Below, piece after piece: positions 4,837-41,262 of a stretch of 64,000 nt of DNA (position 1 is the first letter of the stretch; the number at the start of each line of letters is the position of its first letter). The translations under genes and the position numbers were made by a program. The notes under the pieces are model-generated. The model was not told where the DNA came from, searched no databases, and saw only the letters and a list, made by a program, of their open reading frames with translations. Origin of the DNA: Pseudomonadota bacterium (lineage in GTDB: Bacteria > Pseudomonadota > Gammaproteobacteria > Burkholderiales > Thiobacillaceae); contig JAURYL010000036.1 of NCBI GenBank assembly GCA_030653935.1, forward strand, positions 1 to 64,000, written 5' to 3'.

Positions 4837-4877
4837 TTACCGTCGATGCCATATTGGTATCGTTCTAGGGTTGACTC

Positions 4878-5171
4878 TTGCGGATTATTGCCCTGTCCAC
4901 CCTGCGCGATTTCTGGGAAAAGCGCCCAGATGCCGAAACATCGCTACGAGCATGGCATGCCTTGGCAAGTCGGTCGGACTGGTCGACGCCGGCGGACATC
5001 AAGGCAGCCTATCGGAGTGCCAGTTTCACCGCCGATAACCGGGTGGTGTTCAACATCAAAGGCAATGACTACCGACTGGTGGCGGCGGTCCGCTACGAGA
5101 AGGGGCTGATGTATATCCGGTTCATCGGCACTCATCGCGAGCACGACAAGATCGACGTGGAAACGATTTGA
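4878..5171 (+). CDS. higB: HigB-type mRNA interferase toxin
   Basis: 97-aa RelE-superfamily toxin of the HigB group. The sequence follows the family: MRIIALSTLRDFWEKRPDAE at the N terminus, VVFNIKGNDYRLVAAV in the middle and YIRFIGTHREHDKID at the C terminus. HigB cleaves mRNA at the ribosome. The start is a TTG at 4878, with AGGG about 6 nt upstream; most relatives use ATG here, so translation may be weakened. It is followed after 11 nt by higA, the normal toxin-first order. The partner antitoxin has lost its DNA-binding half (next feature), so whether this toxin is neutralised or silent is an open question. Confidence 0.87.
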   Translation: MRIIALSTLRDFWEKRPDAETSLRAWHALASRSDWSTPADIKAAYRSASFTADNRVVFNIKGNDYRLVAAVRYEKGLMYIRFIGTHREHDKIDVETI

Positions 5172-5182
5172 AGGAGGCAGGC

Positions 5183-5364
5183 ATGGAACTGAAGCCCATC
5201 CGAACCCAGAAGGAATACAAGTCCGCCCTGGCCGACGCCGAGCGTCTGTGGGATGCGCCGGCCAAGTCGCCCGAAGCCGACCGGCTCGATGTGCTGGCCA
5301 TGCTGATCGAGGACTACGAGCGCCGGCATTTCCCCATTCCCGACCCCGACCCCATCGAGTTTCT
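5183..5364 (+). pseudogene. higA: Truncated HigA antitoxin (N-terminal half only)
   Basis: ATG with a strong AAGGAGG site. The product matches HigA from its start (MELKPIRTQKEYKSALADAE) to the proline-rich linker PIPDPDPIEF at about residue 60. The helix-turn-helix half that normally follows is gone. At about 5363 the sequence switches abruptly to a subtilisin-like gene in another frame; the higA frame continues to 5539 as an unrelated tail of about 58 residues. The remaining half contains the region expected to contact the toxin, so partial neutralisation is possible, but operator binding and autoregulation should be lost. Confidence 0.8.
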
Positions 5365-6330
5365 AAGCCCAAAGTGGTTTTCGAAGGCGGCAACGTCAGC
5401 CGAAGTGGTGATTTCGTCGGCACACAATCCAGCCTCAGCTTGCTCACAACGCATCACAAACCGCACGAGCGCCTCTTCACCACCAGCAACGCCACCAGTG
5501 CCGCCTCGGCCCTGTGTGCCCGCATGGCGGCGCAGTTGATGGCGGCCTACCCGCAACTGCGGCCCGAGACCATCCGGGCGCTGATCGTCCATTCCGCCGC
5601 ATGGACCGCTGCCATGCGGCGGATGTATCTACCCGCTGGCAAGCCCGCCACCAAGAGTGACTATGCCCACCTGATCCGCCACTGTAGCTGGGGCGTCCCG
5701 GACCTGGAGCGCGCCCGCTGGAGTGCCGCCAACTCCCTCACTCTGATCGTGGAAGACGCCCTACACCCCTACAAAAAAGAGGGCAGCAACATCAAGACCC
5801 GTGACATGCGTCTGCACGCCTTGCCCTGGCCCCAAGAGGAACTGGAAGCCCTGGGTGAAACGGAAGTACGGATGCGGGTCACCCTGTCCTACTTCATCGA
5901 ACCCAACCCCTCGGCGCGCGGCACAAGCTCGAAATTCCACTACCCCTCCCACCGCCTGCGTTTCGACGTGCGCCGTGCGCAAGAATCCACCGAGGAATTC
6001 ATGGCCCGGGTGAACGCGGCGGCGGCCCTGGAAGAGGACGAACAGGCCAGCAACCCGAAAGACCCGAACTGGTGCCTGGGCGGCCAGCAGCGGCACAAGG
6101 GTTCGCTCCACCAGGACATCTGGACCGGCAGCGCCGCCGACCTCGCCAGTCGGGGCACCCTGGCCGTCTACCCCGCCATGGGCTGGTGGCGCACCCGGCC
6201 CAGGCTGGAACGCTTTAATCGCCCCGCCCGCTACAGCCTGATCGTTTCCATCCGCGCGCCGGAAACCGAGATCGACCTCTACAACGCCGTCGCCGCACAA
6301 ATCCCCGTGCCGGTGACCATCACCACCTGA
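5365..6330 (+). pseudogene. C-terminal half of an IetS-like subtilisin (S8) protease
   Basis: From about 5365 the frame reads KPKVVFEGGN, LSLLTTHHKPHERLFTT, NATSAASALCARMAAQLMAAYP, then PETIRALIVHSAAWT. This is the catalytic-serine half of S8 peptidases of the type paired with an AAA ATPase in the IetAS anti-phage system. The TSAA motif carries the serine. About 250 further residues form the family's C-terminal extension, ending at a stop at 6330. The catalytic Asp and His regions are absent and no start codon belongs to this piece; a frame that opens inside higA (5248) merely reads into it. No ATPase partner is present. The remnant sits directly before a broken hsdM. Confidence 0.75.
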
Positions 6331-6341
6331 CCCGCACACTC

Positions 6342-6899
6342 ATGGATTACCAGGAACAAAAACAACTCGAAGACGACCTCTGGGAGGCCGCCGACCAGTT
6401 GCGCGCCAACTCCAAACTCACCGCCAGCGAATACTCCATGCCGGTGCTGGGCCTGATCTTCCTGCGCCACGCCACCACCCGCTTTGATGCCCTCCTGCCG
6501 GAAGTCGTCAAGACCATCCCCGCCCGCGCCAGCGGCGCCCTGCGCGAGGAACGCATCAAACTCGGCTTCCAGGGCAAAGCCGCCATCTACCTGCCGGAAA
6601 GCCCGTTACGACCATCTCGCCAACCTGCTGACGGGATTGATCCTTACTCCTATCTTTATGAGGTACTGGAGTCGCATGAGATCGTTTTCTCCGATGCCAC
6701 CGGGGCCGCGCGGCAAAGCTGCCATGACGGTTGCTTCGACTGGTCGCGTTTCGAGCAGGACTGGCGCGAGGAACAGGACATGCAAGTCGTCAGAGAGATA
6801 GCGGAACGGATGCTGGGAATGGGCCTGGATGACCGCTCAGACTTCAAGGCCGCCTTGTTGGCGGCGTATCGGGCGGGCAAAGCGAACAGCGCCACGTAA
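6342..6899 (+). pseudogene. hsdM 5' fragment with frameshift, joined to an unidentified tail
   Basis: The first ~85 residues (MDYQEQKQLEDDLWEAADQL, then LTASEYSMPVLGLIFLRHAT and RFDALLPEVV) are the start of a type I DNA methyltransferase of a different subfamily from the intact hsdM at 39.7 kb. After LPE at about 6598 the expected continuation ARYDHLANL lies in another frame, so one base has been gained. Homology stops soon after. The open frame continues with an unrelated stretch (CFDWSRFEQDWREEQDMQ and MLGMGLDDRSDFKAALLAAY) that I do not recognise. All catalytic motifs are missing. Together with the protease remnant this is debris of a lost defence cluster. Confidence 0.7.
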
Positions 6900-7709
6900 T
6901 CTTATGGGTTCGGTTAGCCACCTGGCCCGCTTGCGAGGTGGCGGCGCTATCGGTGCGACTCAGGGCAGGTTGGTCCTGGCCGCCTGAGCAGCCCAGGTTC
7001 CCGGCGCTCGCGGAAGCGCGACGTCGAGAGGGCGCTGCCTTTGACGGTCTGGCCGGCGATCCGCACGTCGGCTTCTTCGCCGAGGCGCAAGTTGCGCGGC
7101 CTGGGCGGCCCCGATGGGCGCGCGTAGTTCCCAATCAAACGAAAAATCAAACGGGCCAGGCTCGAAACGAATCCAAGAGATGGTCGAGTGGGAACTGCCG
7201 GATCGATTGAATGCCTGCTGCGGGGAACGCGAGCATCGGGCTGGAACCGGCTGAGAACGGAAGTCCAAGCCGCTACAGTGATCGTCTCAAAGTCGGCCAT
7301 TCCGGTCAGTCACCCTACCCGTGCGTGATCGTGTGAACGTCGGCTATGTGGCGCTGGGCCGGCGGACAGCTCACGGCCAGGAGCAGCCATTCGGTCTCCG
7401 GGAATTTTTCCGGGCTGAGCGTCAGCATCGCCTCACATTGCAGCCCTTCATAAAATCGGGGGCGGCCTCAGAAATTCGTCCATAACGGCTGTTCGTCCCG
7501 ACTTGATGCCGGCCATTCACCAATGGCTACTTTCTTCGGCAACGAAGAAGCGGTACTGACCCCGAATATCCGCCCGTTACGCGCCGCACCAACGGCTGCA
7601 AACAGCAAGAGTTGGCAGCTTTGCAGCCCATAGCTGCATTACCTCGATTTTTTCCTACACCGCCCCCTTACAATCGGGCGGATTCAAATATGACGATGGC
7701 GGGTGTGGC
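6900..7709. other. 810-bp stretch without a supported gene
   Basis: No intact gene is seen. On the minus strand about 7325-7465 reads like a degraded protein tail (FYEGLQCEAMLTLSPEKFPE then TEWLLLAV) ending at a stop near 7321, but it has no start. Short minus- and plus-strand frames at 6938-7300 lack family features. The end of the stretch should contain the promoter of the accessory cluster that begins at 7710; I could not identify it with confidence. Confidence 0.45.
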
Positions 7710-10700
7710 ATGGCAGCAGCTGGCTTCAGACACATTCCCTGCGGGGCGGCGGTCAATGCGAGCGAGGCGCTCGCCATCGAAAAACTCAAGAACAAGCTGC
7801 AAGGCATCTCCGGTCCCTGGGTACTGCTCTCCAATCTCAGCCATTCCAGCCATGCCTCGCGGCTCTCGGATGAAATCGACCAGGTTGTCATCGGTCCCCC
7901 TGGGGTATTCGTGGTCGAGGTCAAACACTGGGATGCTGCCTGGCTCAAACAGAACCCCCAGACCGTCGACAACGAAGCCGACCGCATTAACGACAAGGCC
8001 AAACGGATTGCCGGAAAGCTGAAAACCGCCTTCGATCCCGGCTTCGTGGCGCCACGGTTGTTGCTCACACGCGGCGGCACTGGCATGCAGGTGGGGCAAC
8101 GCATCAAACACCGTGGGGTACCGGTATTCGGACTGGGCGAGTGGCGTGAACTGGTCGAAGCCGATGCCGCCGTGCAATTAACGTCCGAGCAAATCGAACG
8201 CGCCGCCCTGGTTCTGGAGCCAAGCGCGCGCGCCTCACTGACCGGCGACCTGCGCAGCTTCGCCGGGTTGATCAATCTGGAGCGCATCCCCACGCTGGAC
8301 GCGCCTTTTCACCGCGTTTATCGCGGCCAGCATCCCACCCGGCGCGACAAGGTCGTTCTGCACCTCTACGACCTCTCCGCTGCCGACGGCAAGGATGCTG
8401 AAAACCGGGCGAAGCGCGAATACGAAGTCATGCAGCACTGGCAAAAATCGCCCTATCTGCCCAGCTTGCTCGACTCTTTCCAGGAAGCGGAGCGTTATCC
8501 AGGCGAGTTGTACTGGTTCTCCATGGTCGATCCGGCCGCGCCCACCCTGGCCGAACGTGCCCAGGATGCCCATTGGAGCCTGGATGACCGCCTGCGCTAC
8601 GCCCGTGAAGCGCTGTCGGCCCTGGCCGGATTTCACCAGCCGGTCGAGGCTGGGCTGCCGTGCCTCGTCCATCGCCGCATCACCCCGCAGACCTTGCGGG
8701 TACGCCACAACGGCCGTCCCTTGTTCACCGATTTCAGCGTGGCCCGCCTCGATCAGGCGCTGACAATTTCCCTCGCTCCAGAGGATTTCGGCGAGGACAC
8801 GCCCTATGTCGCGCCGGAAGTCCGGCAAGGGGGGCTGGCGGCGGCCGATGCCCGCTCCGACATCTATGCCCTGTGCGCCAGCCTGATGCCGCTGTTTGCC
8901 GGTGACGAAGCCCGCGCCAGGGAAGCGCGTCAGTTCCTGGAACAAGGTTGTGCCCAGAATCCCGAAGGCCGCGAGTCACTGGCCGACCTGGCCGCCGTGC
9001 TGGAGCGGAACACCGCGCCGATTGCCCAGGCACAACCGGAACTCCCCGCCCCGGAATACTGGGATGAAGACACCGTGGTGCCTTTCCAGAATGCCAAATA
9101 CAAGATCGTCAGTCGTCTGGGGCGCGGCGGCATCGGCCAGACTTTCAAGGTGGTCGAGGTGGATGCGAGCTCCGACGAACGCTACGGCACCTACGTCGCC
9201 AAGCTGATCCATCACGAGGCGGATGCCGAACCGGCGTTACGCGCTTATCGCAAGGCGCGCGCCTACACCGTGCATCCACACCTTTCCGCCATTCACGAAA
9301 TCGCCCCGGACTGGCGAGCTGACCGTTTCGTCGCCTTGTTGAAATGGGTGGAAGGCATGCCGCTGGCCGATCTTGCCGGTGTGCTCGCGCTGCACGCGGA
9401 GGAGTTGGGAGAAACCAGCCTGCAAGACTTGGTGCTGCGCTGGCTGCGTGATCTCTGTGATGCGCTTTGGGCGTTGCATCAGGTGGGTTTGGTGCATGGC
9501 GATGTCAGCCCGCGCAACCTCATCGTCCAGGGTGGCGAAGTGGTGTTGACCGACTACGACACCGTCACCAACGCCGGCAGTGCCGCGCGCAGCCGAAATC
9601 CCTTGTATGCCAGCTACAGCGTGGAAAGCGGTGCGGCGATCCAGGCCAGCGATGATCTTTTCGCCCTGGCCGCCAGCTTTTTTCATGTGTTGTTCGAGCG
9701 CGAGCCCTTCAACTTCGCCGGGCAGCGCATCAAGAACCGTGGGCTGAATTGGGAAGGGCTGGAAAGCGCGGGACTGGAGCGGGTCGTCGAGTTTCTGAAT
9801 CGCGCCACCAGCACCATCGAGGCCAATCGATTCACGGATGCCCGCGTCGCGCTGGCTTTTCTCGCGCCCACCCCATCGGGCACGGTCGAGCCACGTCTTC
9901 CGGCGCCGACATACAGCGAAAACACCGCGCCGCGCCTGGCCGAATTGCTCTCGGCCTACCCTGGCTCCCGCCACGGCAACAGCGAAACCCGAGGCCTCGA
10001 TTCGACCTTCGCCGCTGACACCTACGTGGAAACCCGGCTGGATCATGTGCTGCGGCAAGAACTCGAACAGGATAAGGTCAAGCTCGCCATCCTGTTCGGC
10101 AATGCTGGTGACGGGAAAACCGCGTTCTTGCAGCATCTTCTGGCGGGGCTGGGCTTGTCCGATGTCCACTCATCCCAGCGTGTGCAGGCGCATCGCTTGG
10201 CCGATGAACGCCAGTTGACGGTCAATCTGGATGGTTCCGCCGCCTGGCAAGGCCAGTCGGCCAACACCCTGCTCGACCAGTTCTTCCTGCCTTGCCACGA
10301 CCTGGTTTTCGACGGTGCAGCCAGCAACCCCCGCGTGCTCGCCATCAACAGCGGCAAGCTGCTGGAATGGCTGGAGACCCAGGACGACAGCCCGCTGACG
10401 CGGCAACTCTACGGCGTGCTGTTCGAGACCGACGACGAAGACGAGCCGGTGCTCGATTCGCGCATTCGCCTCATCGACCTGAACCGCCGTTCCCTGGTGG
10501 GCGGCATCCAGGCCGGCGAAATCCGGGTGGATTTCCTCACCGCTCTGCTGGATCGTTTTCTCGGTGTCGGCCTGAAACAAGACCCCTGGGCCGGCTGCGC
10601 CACCTGCATGGCACAACACCGTTGCACCGCCTGGCATTCGGTGCAGACCTTGCGCGCACCGGACATCGGCATGCGTCTGCGCGCCCGCCTCGCGGATGCA

Positions 10701-11621
10701 CTGCAAGCCTGTCACCTGCGCGGGGAAGCCCACATTACCGCGCGGGAACTGAGGGCGGCGCTGGTCTTCCTCTTCTTCGGCGTGCATGACTGTGGAGAAC
10801 TCCATGCCAACCCCGAGTTGATGCCACCCCGTTATTGGGATCGCGCCTTCGCCGCCGATGCGTCGCAACGCCAGGGTGAACTGCTCGCGGAACTCGCCCG
10901 TTTCGACCCGGCGCTGGACAGCAACCCGCTGCTGGATCGGCATCTGCTCAGGGAAACGCCGCACGGCCCCGACGACATCGCCGCCGCCCTGGCCTCCGCC
11001 CGCCGCCGTGCCTGGTTCGAATGGGACGACGCGCGTTACACGGCGCTGCAACTCCCCGCCGATGCCCTGCCGCTGTTCGGCGGCCGCCACCTCGACCGTT
11101 TCCGCCGCGTGCCGCTGATGAACGAGGATGAGCGCGAAGCCCTCTGCCGTGAGCTTTGCCTGGGTGTCGCCCGCCTGGAAGACCTGCCCGAGGCCGCCTT
11201 CGCTCGCGAGATCGGCCTACCGCTGCGCATCCAGCCGCGCACCCCCACCGAAAGCGCCTTCTGGGTGGTGAAACTCTGGGAACGTTTCCACCTGGAAGCG
11301 CCCTTGCCGCGTACCGCCGAAGGGCTGGAAGCGCTGCATACCCACCTGCTGTTGATCTATCGCTACGCGGCTGGGGGCGAGGAACGTTTGCCTGTCGGCC
11401 TGGAATTGTTCCACCTGCTGCTGGCCCTGAAAGACGGCGCCCAGTTGGCCGGCGCCGGCCAGGAAGGCGTGTTCGCCCATCTGGAAATCTTCACCCAGCG
11501 CCTGGCCCAGGAAGACGCCCGCGAACTGCACGGCTGGCATCCCGGCGATGAAGCCAGCGTGTTCCGGGTGCGGGTCGAGGCGCGGGATGGCCGGCAAATA
11601 TTGGTGAGGGAGGCGGCATGA
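7710..11621 (+). CDS. NERD nuclease-like / pseudokinase / protein kinase / P-loop ATPase fusion
   Basis: 1303-aa multidomain cytoplasmic protein. Residues ~16-130 are a NERD domain with D57 (EIDQVVI) and E70/K72 (VEVKHW), matching the nuclease-related core. Residues ~190-435 resemble a protein kinase whose catalytic loop is HRRITPQTL and whose metal motif is DFS, with no clear lysine; it is probably a pseudokinase. Residues ~460-720 are a second kinase with the glycine loop GRGGIG (471-476), VAKLI (K498), HGDVSPRN (D598, N603) and DYD (D615); it looks active. A P-loop GNAGDGKT (797-804) starts a C-terminal ATPase-like region with a C963/C966/C972 cluster. NERD plus kinase recalls PglW of BREX type 2, but no pglX, pglY or pglZ is nearby. 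It overlaps the next gene by 4 nt. A signalling or sensor role in defence is inference. Confidence 0.85.
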   Translation: MAAAGFRHIPCGAAVNASEALAIEKLKNKLQGISGPWVLLSNLSHSSHASRLSDEIDQVVIGPPGVFVVEVKHWDAAWLKQNPQTVDNEADRINDKAKRIAGKLKTAFDPGFVAPRLLLTRGGTGMQVGQRIKHRGVPVFGLGEWRELVEADAAVQLTSEQIERAALVLEPSARASLTGDLRSFAGLINLERIPTLDAPFHRVYRGQHPTRRDKVVLHLYDLSAADGKDAENRAKREYEVMQHWQKSPYLPSLLDSFQEAERYPGELYWFSMVDPAAPTLAERAQDAHWSLDDRLRYAREALSALAGFHQPVEAGLPCLVHRRITPQTLRVRHNGRPLFTDFSVARLDQALTISLAPEDFGEDTPYVAPEVRQGGLAAADARSDIYALCASLMPLFAGDEARAREARQFLEQGCAQNPEGRESLADLAAVLERNTAPIAQAQPELPAPEYWDEDTVVPFQNAKYKIVSRLGRGGIGQTFKVVEVDASSDERYGTYVAKLIHHEADAEPALRAYRKARAYTVHPHLSAIHEIAPDWRADRFVALLKWVEGMPLADLAGVLALHAEELGETSLQDLVLRWLRDLCDALWALHQVGLVHGDVSPRNLIVQGGEVVLTDYDTVTNAGSAARSRNPLYASYSVESGAAIQASDDLFALAASFFHVLFEREPFNFAGQRIKNRGLNWEGLESAGLERVVEFLNRATSTIEANRFTDARVALAFLAPTPSGTVEPRLPAPTYSENTAPRLAELLSAYPGSRHGNSETRGLDSTFAADTYVETRLDHVLRQELEQDKVKLAILFGNAGDGKTAFLQHLLAGLGLSDVHSSQRVQAHRLADERQLTVNLDGSAAWQGQSANTLLDQFFLPCHDLVFDGAASNPRVLAINSGKLLEWLETQDDSPLTRQLYGVLFETDDEDEPVLDSRIRLIDLNRRSLVGGIQAGEIRVDFLTALLDRFLGVGLKQDPWAGCATCMAQHRCTAWHSVQTLRAPDIGMRLRARLADALQACHLRGEAHITARELRAALVFLFFGVHDCGELHANPELMPPRYWDRAFAADASQRQGELLAELARFDPALDSNPLLDRHLLRETPHGPDDIAAALASARRRAWFEWDDARYTALQLPADALPLFGGRHLDRFRRVPLMNEDEREALCRELCLGVARLEDLPEAAFAREIGLPLRIQPRTPTESAFWVVKLWERFHLEAPLPRTAEGLEALHTHLLLIYRYAAGGEERLPVGLELFHLLLALKDGAQLAGAGQEGVFAHLEIFTQRLAQEDARELHGWHPGDEASVFRVRVEARDGRQILVREAA

Positions 11622-13408
11622 ACACGAAAACCATCGTCGAGAACGTATTGACCCCGGCGCGTGCCAAGGAGTTATGGAGCGCCAACTATTTCACGGCGCT
11701 CCCCTTTACCCCCCAGCACTTCGAGGTAGGCAGTCTGTTGCCGGCCATGCTTTACATGGCGCGCTGGGGCCACCGGCGTGGCAAGGGGCATTTCATCGAG
11801 ACCTTTGGCCGTCAGGATGCCCAGGGAAAGGCGCAACCGCCCCGGTTGGTCGATGTGGCAAGTGGCTTGCTCACCCGTGCTGGCGGCGAATTCGACGGCT
11901 TCGCTGGCGACCACGGCCCGGCCATGCTGGCCGATCTGCTGCTCACTTATTGCCTGGAGAACAAGGAGCATGCGCTGGGGCATGGTGAGGGGGTGCAGCG
12001 GGTTTTCCCCACGCATTACCTGGCGAGTTGGCTTGATTTGCCCAAAGAAGTAGCCAACTTGCGCGGCGTCCCCGAAATGCTGACGGCCCTGCTGGCCTGG
12101 CAGGACAAGGGCGGAACGCTTGCCCAGCGTGCCAGCAAGGCTTTTCCTGTTGGTGGTGATTTCAGCGAGAGCCCGCTGTTGGCCTTGTTTGGCCGCCATG
12201 TGGAGATCGACGGCCCCGCCGCCAACCTCGCTTCCGACCGTTTCATGGAACAAACCGCCGACGATCTGGGTGTGGATGAACTGCTGGCGATACGGTTGGC
12301 ACAGGTCTGCGGCCACGCGCCCGGCAAGGTGCCTGGCGCGGGTGCGGACATCCCCAACCGCTGGCCCATCGCCAAAACCGCAGCCAAGTATCTGCGCGGC
12401 GATCTGTCCACCTTCATCGAGGCCTATGGCGCATCGCTACCGCGTCAAGCCTTCCTGCCCATGCTGGAGGCGGGAATAGGCCTCGGCATGGCCAACCTGC
12501 TGTTTTCCACCATGGTTTGTCTGTCCGACTGGGCGCTTACCGGTGCCGTTCCCAAAGACCAGCAGCCGATGCCCTTGTTCGTGGACTGCTCGCACGGTCT
12601 GGACGCCAAGCTGCGCAATGTCTCGGAAGCGGGGATGAGCGAGGCGCTTGCCCGCTTTGAGCGCCTGCCGGTGCTGATGATGCTGGCGCGGGTGTTGGAC
12701 GACCGGGTTAGCCACCATCCCAGGCTAATGAACGATCTGCCGCCCCGGCAACCCGACGCGACAGCCTGGCTCAATCTGCTCGGGGAGGTATACCGGGAGC
12801 GGCACGACAGGGCCGAGTCAATCCTGGAAAGACTGGAAGAAGACTGCGGCCGCCTGGCGGACGAACTGGAAAAGGCAGATGAGGCGCTAGAAGTGGTGCG
12901 GGCGTTGCGCAACGACCAAGTCAATTCTGCGTTGAGGTTAGCGGAAGCGTTGGCGGAGCTTATTGGCTATCAGCAACAGGGACAAAATTACTTGAAGGCA
13001 CTGGACAGCAGCCTCATGCCCAACCGCCCCAACGGACTCGCCTTCAAACGGCGTGTTTCCCGCAGCGAAGCCGGCACGAAGAAGTCTGTAGACCTGCGTT
13101 CCATCGTGCTGTCCCACGCTCTGCTGGACTTTCTGGTGCATCGCCATCTGCGCAAGGACGGTGAAGGCAAAGCTGCGCGGCCCCTCACTCTGCTCCGCTT
13201 CCTCGACATTCTGCGCGACCACTACGGGCTGTATGTGGACCGCGAACCGCCAGGCATGTCCGTGCCGCAAGACCTGCTGCGTGCCAACAAAGCCTGGCTG
13301 GAACGCCGCTTGCGCGACCTGGGCCTGCTGGTGGGGGTGAACGATGCGGAGTCGATGAAGCAGTTGCGGGCGCGGTTTGTTGTGCCGGCAACGGAAGATG
13401 GGAAATAG
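11618..13408 (+). CDS. Unrecognised 596-aa protein of the kinase/ATPase cluster
   Basis: It starts at an ATG overlapping the stop of the kinase gene (ATGA), so the two are translationally coupled. I do not recognise the family. The protein is soluble, with no signal peptide or membrane segment. A charged helical stretch at about residues 395-440 (RAESILERLEEDCGRLADEL) suggests a coiled coil. The C terminus (SIVLSHALLDFLVHRHL, YGLYVDREPPGMSVP, LERRLRDLGLLVGVND) looks like a folded helical domain. Tight coupling indicates that it works stoichiometrically with the NERD-kinase-ATPase protein. The kinase / unknown / large ATPase order invites comparison with the late genes of the MADS defence system, which I could not test. 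Confidence 0.7.
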   Translation: MNTKTIVENVLTPARAKELWSANYFTALPFTPQHFEVGSLLPAMLYMARWGHRRGKGHFIETFGRQDAQGKAQPPRLVDVASGLLTRAGGEFDGFAGDHGPAMLADLLLTYCLENKEHALGHGEGVQRVFPTHYLASWLDLPKEVANLRGVPEMLTALLAWQDKGGTLAQRASKAFPVGGDFSESPLLALFGRHVEIDGPAANLASDRFMEQTADDLGVDELLAIRLAQVCGHAPGKVPGAGADIPNRWPIAKTAAKYLRGDLSTFIEAYGASLPRQAFLPMLEAGIGLGMANLLFSTMVCLSDWALTGAVPKDQQPMPLFVDCSHGLDAKLRNVSEAGMSEALARFERLPVLMMLARVLDDRVSHHPRLMNDLPPRQPDATAWLNLLGEVYRERHDRAESILERLEEDCGRLADELEKADEALEVVRALRNDQVNSALRLAEALAELIGYQQQGQNYLKALDSSLMPNRPNGLAFKRRVSRSEAGTKKSVDLRSIVLSHALLDFLVHRHLRKDGEGKAARPLTLLRFLDILRDHYGLYVDREPPGMSVPQDLLRANKAWLERRLRDLGLLVGVNDAESMKQLRARFVVPATEDGK

Positions 13409-13427
13409 CCCGTAAAGGGGTAAAAAG

Positions 13428-13928
13428 ATGGGGAAGAAACGTCGTAAATCCAAGGTAGTACCAGGCGTTAGTACAGCCAACGCAAGCGGCTTGTATGGTT
13501 ACCACGATCCCAAAATGCTTCCCCCGCAAGGCAGGATACCCGCGCCCTCGAAGAGTCTTGTTGGCCGAACAGAAGCGCCAAGTCTCGGCATAGGTGATGT
13601 GGTTAGCCATGAGGGAATGACCATTGGTCACACTGTTGTGGCGGGCTACATGGTTAACTTTGTCGCGACCTCATGCTCCTGTGGTGGCGAGAACCCGAAT
13701 TGCTACAAGTGCGATGGAACTGGTTATTACGTCGTGGAGCGGCCGGGTTGTGAGGTTGTCGCCCACTGCGAAGGAAAGAAGAAAAAACGGAAATCAAAGA
13801 AACGTGTTGCATCGACCGAGGCAAGTTTCTCGAACGATGCTCGGGGCGGCGACTATGCGATACGGGAAAACGGGCGTTTCTTGAGTAATCCGCTGCATGA
13901 CGATTACGACGATGAATCCACCTCGTAG
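13428..13928 (+). CDS. Small Cys-rich hypothetical protein
   Basis: 166 aa, starting at an ATG behind an AAAGGGG site, 19 nt after the preceding gene. The N terminus is basic (MGKKRRKSKVV). A central CSCGGENPNCYKCDGTGYY resembles one zinc-binding repeat of DnaJ-type zinc fingers (CxC...CxxC-G-x-G), followed by a second basic run (KKKKRKSKKR) and an acidic C terminus. The coding sequence is visibly richer in A than its neighbours, which suggests separate acquisition. The basic runs fit nucleic-acid binding; this is inference. No known family is recognised. Confidence 0.6.
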   Translation: MGKKRRKSKVVPGVSTANASGLYGYHDPKMLPPQGRIPAPSKSLVGRTEAPSLGIGDVVSHEGMTIGHTVVAGYMVNFVATSCSCGGENPNCYKCDGTGYYVVERPGCEVVAHCEGKKKKRKSKKRVASTEASFSNDARGGDYAIRENGRFLSNPLHDDYDDESTS

Positions 13929-13949
13929 GTGCGTGATTCCTCGATTGAA

Positions 13950-13991
13950 TGTAGCCTAACAAGCTTCATTTGTAGCTAATTAAACTACATC
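13950..13991 (+). promoter_or_regulatory. AT-rich promoter/operator region of the MNT gene
   Basis: ATGTAG at 13950, TGTAG at 13971 and CTACA at 13985 form nested inverted repeats immediately before the GTG start at 13992. There is no ribosome site, so a leaderless transcript or repression by the gene's own helix-turn-helix domain is plausible. Confidence 0.4.
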
Positions 13992-14600
13992 GTGCTTGCT
14001 TCCCTATTACTTGGCTCCTACCGCCAGAAAGTGCTGGCCCTCCTGCTGTTGCATCCGGAGCAGCACTTTCATGTGCGGGAAATCGCCCGCCTGACCGGTA
14101 CCTCGGCCGGCACGCTGCACAAGGAACTGGCGCGGTTGGCTCTTGCCGGGGTGCTGAGTAGGGAGGAAGTCGGCAATCAGGTGCGCTACGGCGCCAATCA
14201 ACAGTGCCCGATCTTTCCGGAACTGGCGGGGATATTGCGCAAGACGGCGGGGCTCGCGGATGTGTTGAGAGAAGCTTTGGCCGGCTTGGGTGGGCGCATC
14301 GCGCTTGCGCTGGTGTTCGGCTCCGTGGCACGCGGGGAAGAAGGGCCGCGCAGCGATGTGGATGTGTTGCTGGTGGGTGAGATCGGTTTCGCCGAGGTGG
14401 TTCGCGCGCTGTATGAAGCACAGGCGCGCATCGGCCGGGAGATCAACCCAGTGGTGCTGTCGCCCGCCGAGTTTCAGGAAAAGGCGAGTGCGGGCGACGC
14501 CTTCCTCGCCGAGGTGTTGAACAACGAAAAACTGTTTCTGATGGGAGATGAGCATGACCTTGGAAAACTTGTTGGCGATAAAGCGGTTGCAACGGCATGA
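13992..14600 (+). CDS. HTH-nucleotidyltransferase (MNT-type antitoxin)
   Basis: 202 aa. Residues ~10-70 form an ArsR-like winged helix (FHVREIARLTGTSAGTLHKE). Residues ~100-180 are a minimal nucleotidyltransferase with GSVARGEEGPRSDVDVLLVG, where G110-S111 and D122/D124 are the nucleotide-binding and metal residues. MNT proteins pair with HEPN toxins (type VII toxin-antitoxin) and neutralise them, often by adding AMP to the toxin. The HEPN partner starts within its 3' end (about 47-nt overlap), the standard layout. The start is a GTG with no ribosome site behind palindromic DNA. The pair is embedded between the 596-aa/Cys-rich genes and the HerA-like gene. Confidence 0.83.
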   Translation: MLASLLLGSYRQKVLALLLLHPEQHFHVREIARLTGTSAGTLHKELARLALAGVLSREEVGNQVRYGANQQCPIFPELAGILRKTAGLADVLREALAGLGGRIALALVFGSVARGEEGPRSDVDVLLVGEIGFAEVVRALYEAQARIGREINPVVLSPAEFQEKASAGDAFLAEVLNNEKLFLMGDEHDLGKLVGDKAVATA

Positions 14601-14979
14601 GGCCGGGCGCGCCGCCATTCTGAAATTGCTGGCGGCGGCCGCGCGCAATCTGGCCGACGCCAAGGTCACCACGATCAGCGCGGAAAACCGCTTCGACGCC
14701 GCCTACAAGGCCATCCTGCAATGTGCGATGGCCGCGCTCTGGGCCAAGGGTTTCCGCACATCCACCAGCGAGCCGGGCCACCACCAGACCGCCATCCAGG
14801 CACTGCCCCTGACTCTGGCACTGGACAGCGCCACCGTCATCGTTCTCGACGCGCTCCGCAAACAACGCAATCTGAACGACTACACCGGCGACGGCGTCAA
14901 CGATGCGCTACTCGCCGAGTGCATTGCCCAGGCGGAAGCCCTGTTGCAGCACGCCCGCACCACCCTCGGAGTGTCTTGA
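14554..14979 (+). CDS. HEPN-domain protein (probable RNase toxin partner of MNT)
   Basis: 141 aa, all-helical. It carries the family's C-terminal motif as RKQRNLNDY, the RN(x)3Y variant of the HEPN active site. The start at 14554 is chosen over 14548 because GGGAG lies 6 nt upstream of it and would abut the earlier ATG. HEPN proteins of this size are usually ribonucleases kept silent by the MNT partner, whose gene overlaps it here. It ends one nucleotide before the HerA-like gene, so the pair is almost certainly cotranscribed with it and may stabilise or guard the cluster. Confidence 0.8.
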   Translation: MTLENLLAIKRLQRHEAGRAAILKLLAAAARNLADAKVTTISAENRFDAAYKAILQCAMAALWAKGFRTSTSEPGHHQTAIQALPLTLALDSATVIVLDALRKQRNLNDYTGDGVNDALLAECIAQAEALLQHARTTLGVS

Positions 14980-14980
14980 C

Positions 14981-17900
14981 ATGCCCCTGAACGAAAACGC
15001 GGCACCCATCCTGGCGCTCGCCTTGAAAGAACTGCTGGGGCCGGCCTTGCCTGGCAGCATGGCATTCATCCGTTGCCTACCCGGCGAGGTGGCGCGGGAA
15101 CTGGCGGCAGATCAACGCTTCCTGGTGCCAGGTTGGCGGGTCGCAGTGGTCGGCCAGACGGCGGATGAAAACATCCGCGCCATCACTGCGGACCAGGCGG
15201 TGGAGTGGCGCGAGGACAAGGCGGAAGCGGTGCTGTTGCTGGTGGATACCGCGCAGGCCGGTGCCGGTATGGACGGTATCTACGGCGCGGCGCGTGACAT
15301 CGCTGAAGCAGAATTGTTTGCCACGGCGAAAAAACTGGCGCGTGAGAAGCTGGCACACGGCGGCAAGGGTTTCGCCGACAAGGCTTTGTCCAAGGCGCGC
15401 CGGCTGGCGCGTAACAAGACCTTGTCGCCTTGGCGCGAGTTCGCCTATCTCTGCCGCGCCGCCTACAGCGAGGGAGGTCTGGGTGCGGCCTTGCCGGAAA
15501 TCGGCCTGTGGCCGGTGGCGATTGAGGAAAATGCGGATGACGACGACCTGGAGAAATCCGCCCGCCTGGTGGAACGCCTGCTGGCTGGCAACCGGCAATC
15601 GGCGGAAACGCGGGTGGCGGGCCTGCAACTGCCGGCGGCGGATGAAGCGGTGGGCCGCGAGTTGGCGGAGTTCCTGCGCGAGGCGGACAGTCTTTCTCGG
15701 CTGGATGCGCTGGCGAGGGTGGAAGGGCGGGAGGCCTTGTGGCTGAACAACCTGCGCCCCGGCTTGTTCGATAGCCAGGCCTTGCAGTCGATTCGCTGGG
15801 TGAATTGGCGCGGCAAGAGCGGCAAGCCCGCAGCCTGGTCCGGCCTGGGTGTGGATGCCGATGACCGTCTGGTGTTCAAGCTTGCGCTGACGGATAACCC
15901 GCAACAGCGGGTGCGCCTGGAAGTGCGTTGGGAGACAGAGCCCACCACCTTGGCGAAAGGCGCTGTGGATTACACGGTGGAAATCCGCGCGGGTGGCGAC
16001 GCGCTGGCGGAGAAAACCGTCAGCCACATCGTGAAAAGCCCGCAGAAATGTGTTTTCACTCAGGACGACTTCGGCGAACTGGGTGAGAGTGCCCGCTTCG
16101 AGGCGGAGGTGGTGATCCGGGCACTGACTGCGGAAGCCTTGCTGGAAGGCGATGACCAGGAAAGCCCGTTTCGCGCCTTGAGCAAGGATTTCATTCTGTG
16201 CTTCGGCGAAACCGACAAGCCCGCCAAAACCAGTGCCGGCAGCGTTTACCCCACGCTGGCATTGGCCGCCATCCAGGTGGCGAAAGAGCGGGAGGAGTTC
16301 GACCGGTTGGCCGACAACCCCGGTGACAGGCAAGCCTTCAGCCGGGATGCCAAGGGCTATATCGCCTGCCGCGTGGACGGCAAGGCAGCGCGAGTGCTGT
16401 GCCCGAATCTGTTGCTCGACCTGGCGGCTGACTGGGTGGGGCATGGCGGCGAATCGGGTCGCTGGCGGCTCAAGGTTCGGGCGGATGGCACGCCCGACGG
16501 CAAGCCCGAATTTGTTCCGGTGCCTCCAACCAGCGACGAGGCGGGAAGACGCTTTGCCCAGATTTCCAGAGATTTTTCCCGTTGGCTGGCCACCTCCAGC
16601 CAGGGGCCTCTGGCGGTGCTCTATACGGAACGCAAGATCATCAACGATTACGTCAACGCCGCCACCACCTGGTGGGATTCCGCGCCCGCTCGCGCCACCC
16701 TGATTCACACTCTGGAAGTCGAAGGCGTGGGCGGCCAGCGCATCGGCCTCATCGTGTTGCCCACTCATCCGCTACGTGTCGCCTGGCAACAGAGTTTCGA
16801 CATGCTGGTGTGGCGCCATCGTTATGAGGAAGGCGCGCCGCCGACCAAGGTGGCCAAGCTGCTTGGATCACTGATCGGCGCCCATTACCCGGCCATGCTG
16901 CCGGGTTTCAAAGAAGGCGAGGCCTTCGTGTTCGCCGACAGCCTGGGCTTTCATACCGTGGCGATGACGGCCACCGACGATGCCGAGCCCAAGGCCACCG
17001 TGGCCTTGCTCTCCCGTCTTCTGGGGGATGGCGATGCCAAGGGCGAGGAATTGATGGCCCCTTCAGTAGGCAAGAGCGCTTCCCAACTACTGGGCGAAGA
17101 AGTCGCGCGTTATCTCAACCTGCACCCGGAAACCCGGCGCGTGCATGTCCATGCGCTGCGCCCAGGCGATGCCATGCCCGCAGCGCGTGCCCTGGGTTGT
17201 GCCTTGCGCGGTGCTGAGGCTGCCGAGGTGGATGAAGACGGTGAAGCGCGGGATGGTCATGCCAAACGCGCCTTCGTGCTGGATCTTTTCCCGGCCCCAT
17301 CGCTGGCAAACGGCCGCAAGAGCATGGTGGGACGATTCCTGTCCGCCACCGCCGAGCGTCGCCGCAGTGGCGCCGGGGCGGTGCCGGAGGAAGATCGCTG
17401 GCTGCTGGACAGCGTGACCCGCCCCGGCGGCGTGAGTCTGCCGCGCCTGGCCTGGGCACGGCGCGAGAGCGTAACCCCGGCGACGCCGGCGCATCTGGCC
17501 CTGGCCTTCGACATCTTCACCACCCGCCTGGAATGCGTGCCGAAAGCCAGTGTCCCCGATGCCGCGCTGGAAGTGCATGGCCTGGCCCTGACGCCGGAAC
17601 GCCGTTTCGAGGCAACACCGGTGCCGCGCTGGGTGTCGTCGATCCCGACTGCGCCGGAAGGCGATAAACATCCCGTCGGGCGGGGTTTTTCCGAGCGATT
17701 GGTGAAGGCGCATTCCGCGCTGTTGCGCTGTGTCGCCAAGCGCATGGGCGCGGGCGAGAACGACTGGCCGGTATTGATCACCGAAGTGTCATCCGACCAG
17801 GGCGAGATGTTGGCGAGCCTGCACCGGCTATGCGATTGGGTGGTGACGGTGGACCGCCATGCCGGCGTCGAGTATTTCGACTCCCCGCGCGATCTGCCGA

Positions 17901-19963
17901 AGTTGTATGAGGCCTACCTGATCGACTGCGTGCCGGAACGCGACGACCTGGGTTTTCTGCAACTCATCACCTCCACCAGTTCGCTCGACGAGATCGTGCG
18001 GCTGCTGGATGCCGCCCTCGGAGAAATGGGTTTGTCGGTCAGCCCGCGCAACTGCGCCTTTCTGCTCGATGCGCTGAAAGCGGTGAGCGGCCGCCTCGCC
18101 TTGCGCCTGACCCAATCCGGTACGGTGGCCCAGGAAATGGTGGCGCTGGCGCTGACGCAAAGCCATTGCGCGGGGGGCGGGGAAGAACCCTGGCTTTCCC
18201 TCAAGGAAGGTTTCTTCGTGCCCCTCGACGATGTGCCGGAATTGTTCCGAGCGGTGGGCGAGAGCAAGGACAAGGACGAAACCGGTCAGCGCGCCGATTT
18301 GTTGTATGTGACGGCGGGCCGGCGCGGCGGCTTGAAGTTCAGCTTCGTGGAAGTAAAGTTCCGCCGTTACCTCAAGACCGCTCGCGCGCTGGACCTTCTG
18401 GAGATGATTTCCAGCCAACTCGAAGCGTCCTGCCAGCTCTGGGAAAAGCTGTTCGGGCCGGACACCGCGCCGCTGGAAAAGACCGTGCAACGCGCCCGTC
18501 TGGCGCGGGTGTTGCGTTTCTACGCACGCAAGGGACGCCGCCACACGCTGACGGAAGAAGCGTTTTCCCGCATCGACAAGGAACTGGATAAGTTGGCGCG
18601 CGAAGGTGCCAGTTACGGGCTGCCGACCTTGCTGGAACAGGAGCGGGCCAAGGTAGGCCTGGTGTTCTGTCCGGAATATGGCGGGGCGAAACCGGTGGAG
18701 ATTGGCGCGGACATCTGGTTGTTCGGGCCGGTGCGGCTGCCGGAGACCCAGCCGGGTAGGTTGGGCAAAGCCGAAGGTGTGCCCAACGATACCGACGGTG
18801 ATGTTGGGCACGCTGCGCTTTGCCCAACCTACGTTGCTAACCAGGAGGCACCGGGGAGTGAGCCGGTGCGCGCGGCGCACCCTACGCCGAATCCGCCTGC
18901 AAGCGAGGCGGATGGGAGCGGTTCGGGTGGTGTCGAACTTCTCCTCGGCCAACGAGACGGCAGCGACGAACCGGTGCATTGGCGGGTGAGCATCCAGGGC
19001 AACCCGCATCTGCTGATCGTCGGTTTGCCGGGGATGGGGAAAACCACCTGTTTGATCCAGCTTTGCCGGCAATTGATGGAGGCTGGTATTGCGCCCATCG
19101 TGTTTTCCTACCACCAGGACATTGACGAGAAACTGGGCGCCCTGTGGGGCGATGCGCTACGCACCGTGAGTTATGCCGGCCTGGGCTTCAACCCGCTGCA
19201 AGTGGTGAGCGATGCACCGCTCGCCTACATGGACAACGTGACCCTGCTGCGTGACAATTTCGCGGCCATCTTCCCGGACCTGGGCGACGTGCAGTTGGGC
19301 CGGATGCGCGAGGCGATCAAACAGAGTTATGTAGTCCAGGGCTGGAAAGTGGGCACCCAAGGCGAAATCCCACCCTTCTCTGCGTTCTACGACTTGCTCA
19401 AGGCCGACCCCAAACCGGACAAGGGACTGATGACCCGGCTGGCGGAGTTGGCGGATTACGGATTGTTCGAGTCCACCACCGGTGCGCCCAGCCTGCTTGA
19501 CAGCGCAAGCCCCGTCCTGGTGCAAATCCACAGTTCGCAAAATGAAGTGCTGCAAAGGGCGTTTTCCACCTTCGTGCTGCACAACCTCTACCAGTCCATG
19601 TTCCGGCGTGGCACGCAAAGCCGCATCACCCACGCCATCATCTTCGACGAGGCGCACCGCGCGGCCCGCTTGAAGCTGATTCCGACCATGGCCAAGGAGT
19701 GCCGCAAATATGGGCTGTCCTTCGTGGTGGCATCGCAGGAGGCGAAGGATTTCGACTCCTCCCTGTTCACAGCCGTTGCCAACTACCTGGCGCTGCGGGT
19801 CAACGAATCCGACGCCAAGTTGATGGCGAAAATCTTCGCCCCTTCGGACAAAGTGACGCTCTACGCGGATCGGATCAAACAGATGGCCAAGTTCAAGGCC
19901 TGGTTTTATTCGGAAGGGATGCGGGCGCCGGTTCCTGTGGCGCTTGGGAATGGTGAACATTGA
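14981..19963 (+). CDS. Large protein with PD-(D/E)XK-like motif and HerA/FtsK-type ATPase domain
   Basis: 1660 aa; ATG at 14981 immediately follows the HEPN gene stop. A ~1000-residue N-terminal part has no family I recognise. A nuclease-like core follows: D1106 (RADLLYV) then E1124-V-K1126 (FVEVKFRR), matching D...ExK. After a low-complexity linker (about residues 1250-1320), a C-terminal HerA/FtsK-type ATPase has Walker A GLPGMGKTT (1348-1356) and Walker B IIFDEAHRAAR (D1556, E1557). A DNA-pumping nuclease is a reasonable reading, and architecture and size recall DptH of phosphorothioation-dependent restriction, but no dnd genes are present. The linker contains a mobile palindrome in frame (18756-18832). 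It is the last gene of the cluster. Confidence 0.82.
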   Translation: MPLNENAAPILALALKELLGPALPGSMAFIRCLPGEVARELAADQRFLVPGWRVAVVGQTADENIRAITADQAVEWREDKAEAVLLLVDTAQAGAGMDGIYGAARDIAEAELFATAKKLAREKLAHGGKGFADKALSKARRLARNKTLSPWREFAYLCRAAYSEGGLGAALPEIGLWPVAIEENADDDDLEKSARLVERLLAGNRQSAETRVAGLQLPAADEAVGRELAEFLREADSLSRLDALARVEGREALWLNNLRPGLFDSQALQSIRWVNWRGKSGKPAAWSGLGVDADDRLVFKLALTDNPQQRVRLEVRWETEPTTLAKGAVDYTVEIRAGGDALAEKTVSHIVKSPQKCVFTQDDFGELGESARFEAEVVIRALTAEALLEGDDQESPFRALSKDFILCFGETDKPAKTSAGSVYPTLALAAIQVAKEREEFDRLADNPGDRQAFSRDAKGYIACRVDGKAARVLCPNLLLDLAADWVGHGGESGRWRLKVRADGTPDGKPEFVPVPPTSDEAGRRFAQISRDFSRWLATSSQGPLAVLYTERKIINDYVNAATTWWDSAPARATLIHTLEVEGVGGQRIGLIVLPTHPLRVAWQQSFDMLVWRHRYEEGAPPTKVAKLLGSLIGAHYPAMLPGFKEGEAFVFADSLGFHTVAMTATDDAEPKATVALLSRLLGDGDAKGEELMAPSVGKSASQLLGEEVARYLNLHPETRRVHVHALRPGDAMPAARALGCALRGAEAAEVDEDGEARDGHAKRAFVLDLFPAPSLANGRKSMVGRFLSATAERRRSGAGAVPEEDRWLLDSVTRPGGVSLPRLAWARRESVTPATPAHLALAFDIFTTRLECVPKASVPDAALEVHGLALTPERRFEATPVPRWVSSIPTAPEGDKHPVGRGFSERLVKAHSALLRCVAKRMGAGENDWPVLITEVSSDQGEMLASLHRLCDWVVTVDRHAGVEYFDSPRDLPKLYEAYLIDCVPERDDLGFLQLITSTSSLDEIVRLLDAALGEMGLSVSPRNCAFLLDALKAVSGRLALRLTQSGTVAQEMVALALTQSHCAGGGEEPWLSLKEGFFVPLDDVPELFRAVGESKDKDETGQRADLLYVTAGRRGGLKFSFVEVKFRRYLKTARALDLLEMISSQLEASCQLWEKLFGPDTAPLEKTVQRARLARVLRFYARKGRRHTLTEEAFSRIDKELDKLAREGASYGLPTLLEQERAKVGLVFCPEYGGAKPVEIGADIWLFGPVRLPETQPGRLGKAEGVPNDTDGDVGHAALCPTYVANQEAPGSEPVRAAHPTPNPPASEADGSGSGGVELLLGQRDGSDEPVHWRVSIQGNPHLLIVGLPGMGKTTCLIQLCRQLMEAGIAPIVFSYHQDIDEKLGALWGDALRTVSYAGLGFNPLQVVSDAPLAYMDNVTLLRDNFAAIFPDLGDVQLGRMREAIKQSYVVQGWKVGTQGEIPPFSAFYDLLKADPKPDKGLMTRLAELADYGLFESTTGAPSLLDSASPVLVQIHSSQNEVLQRAFSTFVLHNLYQSMFRRGTQSRITHAIIFDEAHRAARLKLIPTMAKECRKYGLSFVVASQEAKDFDSSLFTAVANYLALRVNESDAKLMAKIFAPSDKVTLYADRIKQMAKFKAWFYSEGMRAPVPVALGNGEH
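18756..18832. repeat. REP/MITE-like palindrome inside the HerA-like coding sequence
   Basis: Arms of about 30 nt start GTAGGTTGGGCAAAGC and end GCTTTGCCCAACCTAC around a ~15-nt centre. The same element recurs at 25307-25380 upstream of malQ-treY. Here it is translated without interrupting the frame. A second repeat-like piece follows (GGTGCGCGCGGCGCACCCTACG split over 18866-18890). Confidence 0.85.
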
Positions 19964-41255: not shown

Positions 41256-41262
41256 AACCCGG

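What the first reader, a model, noticed from the sequence alone, without database searches (positions are those of the whole stretch)
7710..19963. Candidate undescribed defence system: NERD-pseudokinase-kinase-ATPase, 596-aa partner, Cys-rich protein, MNT/HEPN pair, nuclease/HerA-like motor
Six co-directional genes with overlaps or tiny gaps form a 12-kb unit in a region full of defence debris. Seen: NERD D57/E70/K72; two kinase domains, the first degenerate (HRR, DFS), the second with intact K498, HGD598 and DYD615; P-loop GNAGDGKT; in the last gene D1106/E1124-V-K1126 and Walker A/B at 1348 and 1556. Known: NERD-kinases occur in BREX type 2 (PglW), large nuclease-linked ATPases in Dpt/Dnd and HerA systems, kinase plus ATPase genes in MADS. 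None of the companion genes that define those systems (pglX, pglZ, dndB-E, a MADS methyltransferase) is present. Inference: kinase signalling coupled to a DNA-translocating nuclease.
Basis: partly seen in the sequence, partly recalled or inferred. Interest (0 to 1): 0.88.

Follow-up and report, generated by a model that had tools for sequence, protein, structure and literature searches.

The report
Kinase-fused DndFGH-type restriction module
A three-gene bacterial defence module, related to known systems that damage invading phage DNA, carries a built-in protein kinase, has no obvious DNA-marking partner gene beside it, and in some bacteria also hosts a toxin-antitoxin-like gene pair between its second and third genes.

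Summary
The unit is a conserved three-gene core (F 7710-11621, G 11618-13408, H 14981-19963) with an optional Cys-rich gene and MNT/HEPN pair inserted between G and H; all six genes recur in 1 of 17 relatives. F-G-H recurs in loci labelled Pseudomonadota, Myxococcota, Nitrospirota and Bacillota. F, G, H are one-to-one homologues of MAD6, MAD7, MAD8 of MADS (F full length, H over its body, G over its C-terminal part); F also matches SspF and DptF. The order NERD, pseudokinase, kinase, DndF core was already described for a subset of DndF (Rakesh 2024). Seemingly new: MAD6-8 is tied to Dnd/Ssp-FGH; H joins a MAD8-like body to a DptH-type HerA motor; MAD5 precedes MAD6 in 6 of 6 MADS loci, but phmmer found no MAD2/MAD5 upstream of F in 16 relatives; a MNT/HEPN cassette in one lineage is under purifying selection. 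Some relatives have other methyltransferases nearby, and this genome has a DndC module elsewhere, so a mark made in trans is not excluded. Most likely a kinase-controlled, DNA-translocating nuclease against invading DNA. Family placement about 0.9, defence role about 0.8, kinase control about 0.4. New variant of a known kind.

The parts
7710..11621 (+). F: 1303 aa; NERD (17-115), pseudokinase, active Ser/Thr kinase (464-668), DndF/SspF-type P-loop domain with CxxC(x5)C insert, C-terminal region; MAD6 homologue
   Evidence: Pfam NERD 3.3e-9 and Pkinase 4.8e-16; SspF 3.6e-16 on 774-1027; NCBIfam MADS6 7.7e-56, below cut-off; hhalign to MAD6 full length E 1e-89; residues
11618..13408 (+). G: 596 aa; MAD7 homologue in the DndG/SspG position, probable DNA-contact subunit (inferred)
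   Evidence: NCBIfam MADS7 2.2e-30, below cut-off; hhalign MAD7 98.2% over the C-terminal part; AF2 model pLDDT 72, no PDB match at E 0.001
13428..13928 (+). 166-aa protein with CSCGGENPNCYKCDGTGYY motif; optional, relative found only in L012
   Evidence: no family hits; 45% identity to a Sulfuritalea ORF, none in the other 20 loci searched; no plasmid match
13992..14600 (+). MNT nucleotidyltransferase with N-terminal HTH (PADLOC PDC-M05A); optional cassette
   Evidence: PDC-M05A 8.1e-77; GSx10DxD intact in 6 of 6 aligned; dN/dS 0.17
14548..14979 (+). HEPN-like partner (PADLOC PDC-M05B); RNLNDY motif, no canonical Rx4-6H (motif recalled)
   Evidence: PDC-M05B 1.1e-64; RNLxDY in 4 of 4 aligned; dN/dS 0.11
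14981..19963 (+). H: 1660 aa; MAD8-like body, PD-(D/E)xK-type nuclease D1106/E1124/K1126, DptH-type HerA/FtsK motor (Walker A 1348, Walker B 1556)
   Evidence: DndH motor 1.2e-19 and SspH middle 2.3e-5; hhalign body vs MAD8 7.9e-46, motor vs DptH 1.5e-22; residues
6342..6899 (+). relic: about 86 N-terminal residues of a type I HsdM followed by unrelated sequence; debris, not part of the system
   Evidence: HsdM_N 4.9e-9; MTase_I 2.6e-24 over residues 4-86

Best explanation
The cluster is a stand-alone, kinase-fused DndFGH/MAD6-8-type restriction module. H is the effector: a HerA/FtsK motor moves along DNA while its PD-(D/E)xK domain nicks or cuts. G is a DNA-contact subunit. F is the control subunit: a nucleotide-binding P-loop domain with a probable zinc-bearing lid, preceded by a NERD nuclease domain, a pseudokinase and an active kinase. 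Shown here by sequence: homology, domain order, conserved catalytic residues, operon conservation, no intact modification gene next to the cluster in the window. Inferred: that the complex attacks invader DNA (from experiments on DndFGH and SspFGH), and that the fused kinase, rather than a dedicated co-encoded DNA mark, holds the nuclease off or switches it on. The MNT/HEPN pair is an optional cassette of one lineage, plausibly a back-up toxin released if the main module is blocked.
For: Profile-profile: F vs MAD6 E 1e-89 full length; G vs MAD7 3.7e-14; H body vs MAD8 7.9e-46; F vs SspF 2.4e-16 and vs DptF 2.2e-10; H motor vs DptH 1.5e-22. Mismatched pairs as controls: best probability 0.7, 0.6 and 0.5% and 0.2 and 0.1%. 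DndF hallmarks: GNAGDGKT, Asn at Walker B, N-x-D (16 of 16), CxxC(x5)C lid insert (16 of 16). F-G linkage in 16 of 17 and G-H in 15 of 17 loci. No flanking ORF shared between any two loci at E 1e-6. MAD5 just upstream of MAD6 in 6 of 6 MADS loci; phmmer with one MAD2 and one MAD5 found neither within 3.5 kb upstream of F in 16 relatives, 12 of which have at least 1.4 kb there. DndFGH is a translocation-coupled nickase restrained by its PT mark, and a phage kinase can disrupt it by phosphorylation (PMC11662687, passages).
Against: No experiment on this family. A mark could come in trans: this genome has a DndC-containing module on another contig, its close relative L009 comes from a genome with a partial DndC match, and DndC is mildly over-represented among genomes with the module (4 of 18 with any match against 12 of 228, Fisher p 0.02; over cut-off 2 of 18 against 4 of 228, p 0.06; without the own genome p 0.08 and 0.30). 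Four of 17 examined loci have a DNA methyltransferase in the flanks; that of L020 lies 21 bp upstream of F, has an NPPF motif and matches the mad2 profile weakly (1.9e-8), and those of L030 and L032 also match MAD2 weakly. MADS has both kinase and methylation, so the kinase is not simply a substitute for a mark. AF2 models were of moderate quality and gave no significant PDB match. G shows no detectable similarity to DptG, and H's body none to DptH's. In L023 the REase residues are lost.
Confidence: 0.55

Rival explanations
1. It uses a DNA mark supplied in trans by whichever modification system the host has (phosphorothioate from the Dnd-type module on contig C67, or N6-methylation by resident type I or neighbouring MTases), so it is a split restriction-modification system.
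For: DndC over cut-off in this genome with DndD/PbeC-like and HerA genes; mild excess of DndC among genomes with the module; MTases near 4 of 17 loci; type I RM genes at 39744-46427.
Against: 14 of 18 distinct genomes with the module have no DndC match; the neighbouring MTases differ in family, side and strand, and 13 of 17 loci show none in the stretch held, though several stretches are short.
Confidence: 0.3
2. It is a degraded MADS locus whose mad1-5 were lost and which no longer works.
For: Upstream debris with truncated HsdM and subtilase relics; F, G, H map one-to-one on MAD6-8.
Against: Purifying selection and intact catalytic residues; F-G-H without upstream MAD2/MAD5 hits in 16 relatives; the HsdM relic matched three type I models and no mad2 model at E 0.001; H's motor is of another type than MAD8's.
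Confidence: 0.07
3. The kinase, NERD and MNT/HEPN are suicide effectors; the system works by abortive infection, with the HerA-nuclease serving mainly to sense or hold invader DNA.
For: Rakesh 2024 interprets N-terminal fusions of DndF as back-up effectors; MNT/HEPN pairs are toxin-antitoxin-like (NCBIfam MntA hit below cut-off).
Against: REase residues of H are conserved in 12 of 13; MNT is absent from 10 of 15 loci with G and H; the HEPN lacks the canonical Rx4-6H.
Confidence: 0.2

Closest known systems
MADS (methylation-associated defence system), MAD6-MAD7-MAD8
   Same: Same three genes in the same order; F homologous over full length, H over about its first 1185 columns, G over its C-terminal part
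   Different: MAD2 and MAD5 not found beside it; H carries a DptH-type rather than MAD8-type HerA motor; scores below the NCBIfam cut-offs
DndFGH/DptFGH, in particular the NERD-pseudokinase-kinase-fused DndF subset (Rakesh 2024, PMC10853773)
   Same: Three-gene F-G-H layout; DndF P-loop hallmarks and lid insert; HerA motor of the DptH type; stand-alone occurrence
   Different: G not detectably similar to DptG and H body not to DptH body; no dnd genes alongside; DptF model TIGR03238 does not ring in its own genome
SspFGH (PMC8092258)
   Same: SspF-like P-loop domain in F; SspH-like middle region in H; weak SspG-like C-terminus in G
   Different: No ssp modification genes alongside; N-terminal NERD and kinases; different HerA motor
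BREX type 2 PglW
   Same: NERD plus inactive and active kinase at the N-terminus (PMC12839542, passages)
   Different: Best PglW stretch covers only residues 20-401; pglX/pglZ/pglY not seen in the window ORFs scanned
PADLOC candidate PDC-M05A/B
   Same: MNT and HEPN proteins at 13992-14979 are strong members
   Different: Here embedded between G and H of another operon

Membership tests
MADS | MAD6, MAD7, MAD8 homologues in order | tested here: met
   but below the NCBIfam equivalog cut-offs
MADS | MAD2 methyltransferase and MAD5 specificity subunit in the operon | tested here: not met
   none next to the window cluster among ORFs scanned; phmmer found none within 3.5 kb upstream in 16 relatives; own-genome MAD2 matches all under cut-off; the same model also rings under cut-off in 10 of 14 control genomes
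DndFGH (broad sense of Rakesh 2024) | F: P-loop kinase with canonical Walker A, Asn in Walker B, N/D motif, augmented lid | tested here: met
   motifs and lid insert in 16 of 16; hhalign to DptF 96.8%. Lid size and strand order not checked
DndFGH (broad sense of Rakesh 2024) | G: triple winged HTH | tested here: inconclusive
   AF2 model moderate, no PDB match at E 0.001; no hhalign match to DptG
DndFGH (broad sense of Rakesh 2024) | H: REase followed by HerA/FtsK motor with sensor Gln | tested here: met
DndFGH (broad sense of Rakesh 2024) | H: SWI2/SNF2-like domain, HTH, beta-sandwiches, TRDs, inactive DAM | tested here: inconclusive
   AF2 of residues 1-1200 pLDDT 65; Foldseek list holds beta-sandwich folds but nothing at E 0.001; H body vs DptH body 0.6%
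SspFGH | sspBCD or other PT genes adjacent | tested here: not met
   none among window ORFs scanned; a DndC module lies on another contig
BREX type 2 | pglX, pglZ, pglY with pglW | tested here: not met
   none among hits listed for the cluster and 22 other window ORFs (two PADLOC lists and one are cut at 25 families)
PDC-M05 | A (MNT) and B (HEPN) adjacent | tested here: met
   8.1e-77 and 1.1e-64

The most novel reading that the evidence does not exclude
This is a mark-free restriction machine: the fused kinase replaces DNA modification as the self/non-self safety, keeping the HerA-nuclease off by phosphorylation until infection disturbs nucleotide pools or the kinase. It would be a sister form of the MADS effector, so that MAD6-8 is the missing restriction arm of MADS, a translocating nuclease of the DndFGH superfamily whose motors can be swapped.
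Probability: 0.25. Interest if true: 0.8.

Novelty: new variant of a known kind. Interest (0 to 1): 0.55.

Why it matters
A 2026 review lists MADS among systems whose restriction mechanism is unknown (PMC12904381, passages). The window family ties MAD6-8 to the biochemically studied DndFGH nickase-translocase and so makes a direct prediction for MADS. It also offers natural versions of the machine without an obvious adjacent modification gene, good material to ask whether a protein kinase can take over self/non-self control. The H chimera points to motor exchange between restriction systems.

Tried and rejected
A single six-gene system: rejected; all six genes recur in 1 of 17 loci (L012), MNT in 5 of 15 loci with G and H. 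BREX type 2: the best PglW stretch is residues 20-401 of F. A conserved flanking modification gene: none found, by all-against-all of flank ORFs, Pfam on 16 selected flank ORFs, PADLOC on 6 and phmmer with 13 MTase/HsdS references on 428 flank ORFs of 17 loci (L013, L025 and the duplicate L016, L019 were left out, and no cytosine-C5 MTase was chosen as reference). Structure route: G and H models gave no PDB match at E 0.001. A tree of HerA motors was too long-branched to use, and there L023 did not group with the other window-family motors; the motor claim rests on hhalign alone. Viral contigs (six peptide patterns) and phage records gave no G relative. Rows dropped: L012, L022, L024, L025 from the G alignment for AF2, L067 from the DptG and DptH sets. 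A notebook entry writes kinase D600; the correct number is D598.

Full report
What is there. The window holds six co-directional ORFs at 7710-19963 as reported. The last ORF most likely starts at 14981, 1 bp after the HEPN stop, giving 1660 aa.

Family hits. Gene 1 (F): NERD and kinase, an SspF-type P-loop stretch at 774-1027, and NCBIfam MADS6 at 189.9 bits against a cut-off of 460. Gene 2 (G): MADS7 (106.2 of 410 bits), PADLOC mad7 (4.7e-10) and a marginal SspG. Last gene (H): DndH motor, mad8 and SspH stretches. The small pair is PADLOC PDC-M05A/B with E-values of 8.1e-77 and 1.1e-64. The 166-aa Cys-rich gene has no family hit.

The core is three genes. A genome-collection scan with three G sequences gave 17 loci. 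An F match lies next to G in 16 of 17 and an H match follows G in 15 of 17 (L024 ends at the contig end, L025 is a broken G with neither). Two Rhizobium plasmids carry the same triplet. Record titles, mostly MAGs, name Accumulibacter, Sulfuritalea, Hydrogenophilus, Competibacteraceae, Paraburkholderia, Thiohalocapsa, Magnetococcales, Myxococcota, Nitrospiraceae and Bacillota. In whole genomes the module is rare: 3 of 369 in the class sample, own included. In the order sample 4 of 399 matched the G profile, but the three others are MADS loci matched only at the C-terminus of G, and none of the five same-genus genomes listed matched. It is therefore accessory and probably horizontally acquired (inference).

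The insert. MNT lies between G and H in 5 of the 15 loci with both genes (L009, L010, L011, L012, L022); HEPN is whole in three of these, in two overlapping pieces in L022 and internally deleted in L011; the other 10 of 15 and both plasmid loci have neither by tblastn. On a G tree the label needs two changes, best read as one gain with one loss in L013, but support there is modest. MNT and HEPN evolve under purifying selection (dN/dS 0.17 and 0.11 against L009; F 0.12, G 0.11). The MNT active-site motif is intact in 6 of 6; the HEPN has RNLxDY and no Rx4-6H in 4 of 4 (motif definitions recalled). The Cys-rich gene has a relative only in L012 (45%), so all six genes recur in 1 of 17 loci. In L042, a relative with a kinase-free F, the same G-H junction holds an N6-methyltransferase and an HsdS gene, so this junction has taken inserts more than once.

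Relation to MADS, Ssp and Dnd. HMMs built from the window family hit MAD6 (1.7e-89), MAD7 (3.5e-14) and MAD8 (2.6e-56) in locus L041, whose MAD2-MAD8 all pass NCBIfam cut-offs. With hhalign: F vs MAD6 full length, E 1e-89; F vs the kinase-free F of L042 1.1e-42; F vs SspF 2.4e-16; F vs DptF 2.2e-10; G vs MAD7 3.7e-14 over the C-terminal part; G vs SspG weak (74.6%, 50 columns); G vs DptG nothing; H vs MAD8 2.3e-44 over columns 13-1185; H vs SspH 5.4e-9 over a middle stretch; H vs DptH 3.5e-19 over columns 1241-1583 only. Split into body and motor, the body goes with MAD8 (7.9e-46; SspH 1.6e-9; DptH body 0.6%) and the motor with DptH (1.5e-22; MAD8 motor 9.1e-6; SspH motor 10%). H is therefore a chimera, as expected from the 'HerA capture' described by Rakesh et al. 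(PMC10853773, section 22). Reference sets were small (2-4 sequences per reference family, one for L042), and direct Ssp-Dpt comparisons were not significant with them.

Known hallmarks. Rakesh et al. describe DndF as a P-loop kinase with Asn at Walker B, an N/D motif, a large lid with an optional zinc insert, and in some cases successive N-terminal wHTH, NERD and inactive plus active kinase fusions (passages). Sixteen of 16 F sequences, three MAD6 included, have GNAGDGKT, [IV]N at Walker B and N-x-D and C-x2-C-x5-C. So the architecture itself is in print. I did not find the identity with MAD6-8 stated; searches made: (one search found 15 papers, 10 were listed). The MADS paper itself (Maestri 2024) is not held and could contain it.

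Modification genes. In 6 of 6 MADS loci MAD5 lies just upstream of MAD6 (L031, L040, L041, L063-L065); MAD2 was seen in 4 of these, the L031 stretch starting inside MAD5 and L065 showing none in its remaining 1.6 kb. In the window family, phmmer with one MAD2 and one MAD5 found neither within 3.5 kb upstream of F in 16 loci, of which 12 have at least 1.4 kb there. Against this: some methyltransferase lies in the flanks of 4 of 17 loci (L015, L020, L030, L032). That of L020 is 21 bp upstream of F, has an NPPF motif and matches the PADLOC mad2 profile at 1.9e-8, below a type II model at 4.6e-12, so that member may have its own mark; the single-sequence phmmer missed it. The two of L032, just downstream of H, match mad2 at 2.8e-6 and 1.2e-6, the first also mad1 at 2.4e-7, with type II models far ahead; one of L030 matches MAD2 at 7e-7, and an HsdS-like ORF of L015 matches MAD5 at 2.6e-7. 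No flank ORF is shared between any two loci at E 1e-6. In the window itself only an HsdM relic lies near; an intact type I HsdM lies at 39744 (PADLOC type I 5e-137, mad2 4.5e-48).

Phosphorothioate in trans. The own genome has, on contig C67, DndC over cut-off, a DndD/PbeC-like ATPase, a HerA with SspH-like motor and a further ATPase. Of 20 handles with the module (18 distinct genomes), DndC matches at E 0.001 in 4 and over cut-off in 2; one of the other two, in the genome of the close relative L009, is a 165-bit partial match with a stop inside. The class sample has 13 of 229 and 5 of 229, own included. Fisher tests give 0.02 (any match) and 0.06 (over cut-off), or 0.08 and 0.30 without the own genome. 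PT in trans is thus possible here, with a mild excess, but 14 of 18 genomes have no DndC match.

Mechanism. Established for relatives: DndFGH is a 2:2:1 complex with translocation-coupled nicking, restrained by the PT mark, and a phage Ser/Thr/Tyr kinase can disrupt it by phosphorylation (PMC11662687, passages); SspFGH damages unmarked DNA and is toxic without its mark (PMC8092258, passages). Inference: the window module is a nuclease-translocase of this type whose built-in kinase provides control. Whether the kinase is a lock, a trigger or a suicide effector cannot be told from sequence. The MNT/HEPN cassette is plausibly a back-up.

Limits. The AF2 models of G (pLDDT 72) and of H residues 1-1200 (pLDDT 65) gave no PDB match at E 0.001, so the triple wHTH of G and the N-terminal domains of H remain untested. 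In L023 the REase residues are lost. The copies in L010, L013, L022 and L025 are interrupted, from decay or assembly error. Many loci are short MAG contigs.

Noticed in passing
window 4846-6899: Deletion debris: a HigB-like ORF (by eye, recalled), an ORF running into a subtilase/IetS relic (5248-6330), and an HsdM N-terminal relic followed by unrelated sequence (6342-6899).
   Followed up: partly
window 39744-46427: Type I RM genes: HsdM and HsdR matches, a PDC-S05 gene between, and an HsdS ORF of only 203 aa matching mainly the C-terminal part of specificity subunits.
   Followed up: no
L055 (G000:C67) 4704-10796: Dnd-type module on another contig of the same genome without F, G or H hits: DndC, DndD/PbeC-like ATPase, HerA with SspH-like motor, AriA/PtuA-like ATPase.
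   Followed up: partly
L042 8907-19500: F without kinase, G, N6-methyltransferase, HsdS, then H, beside an integrase and a Panacea-domain gene: an intermediate between SspFGH, MADS and the window family.
   Followed up: partly
L031 1144-12625: MAD6-8 with a MAD5-like ORF upstream on a Piscinibacter plasmid near genes annotated TnsA-like, TniB and TniQ.
   Followed up: no
window 2696-4228: Fic-domain protein on the minus strand next to a 417-aa ORF (1575-2828) without Pfam or PADLOC hits at E 0.001.
   Followed up: no
L032 21410-25631: Two DNA methyltransferases and a PLD-family gene directly downstream of the triplet on a Rhizobium plasmid; the first MTase also matches the short mad1 model.
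   Followed up: partly
L023 11794-16590: H of the Bacillota copy has lost the REase D/E/K residues while Walker motifs remain.
   Followed up: no
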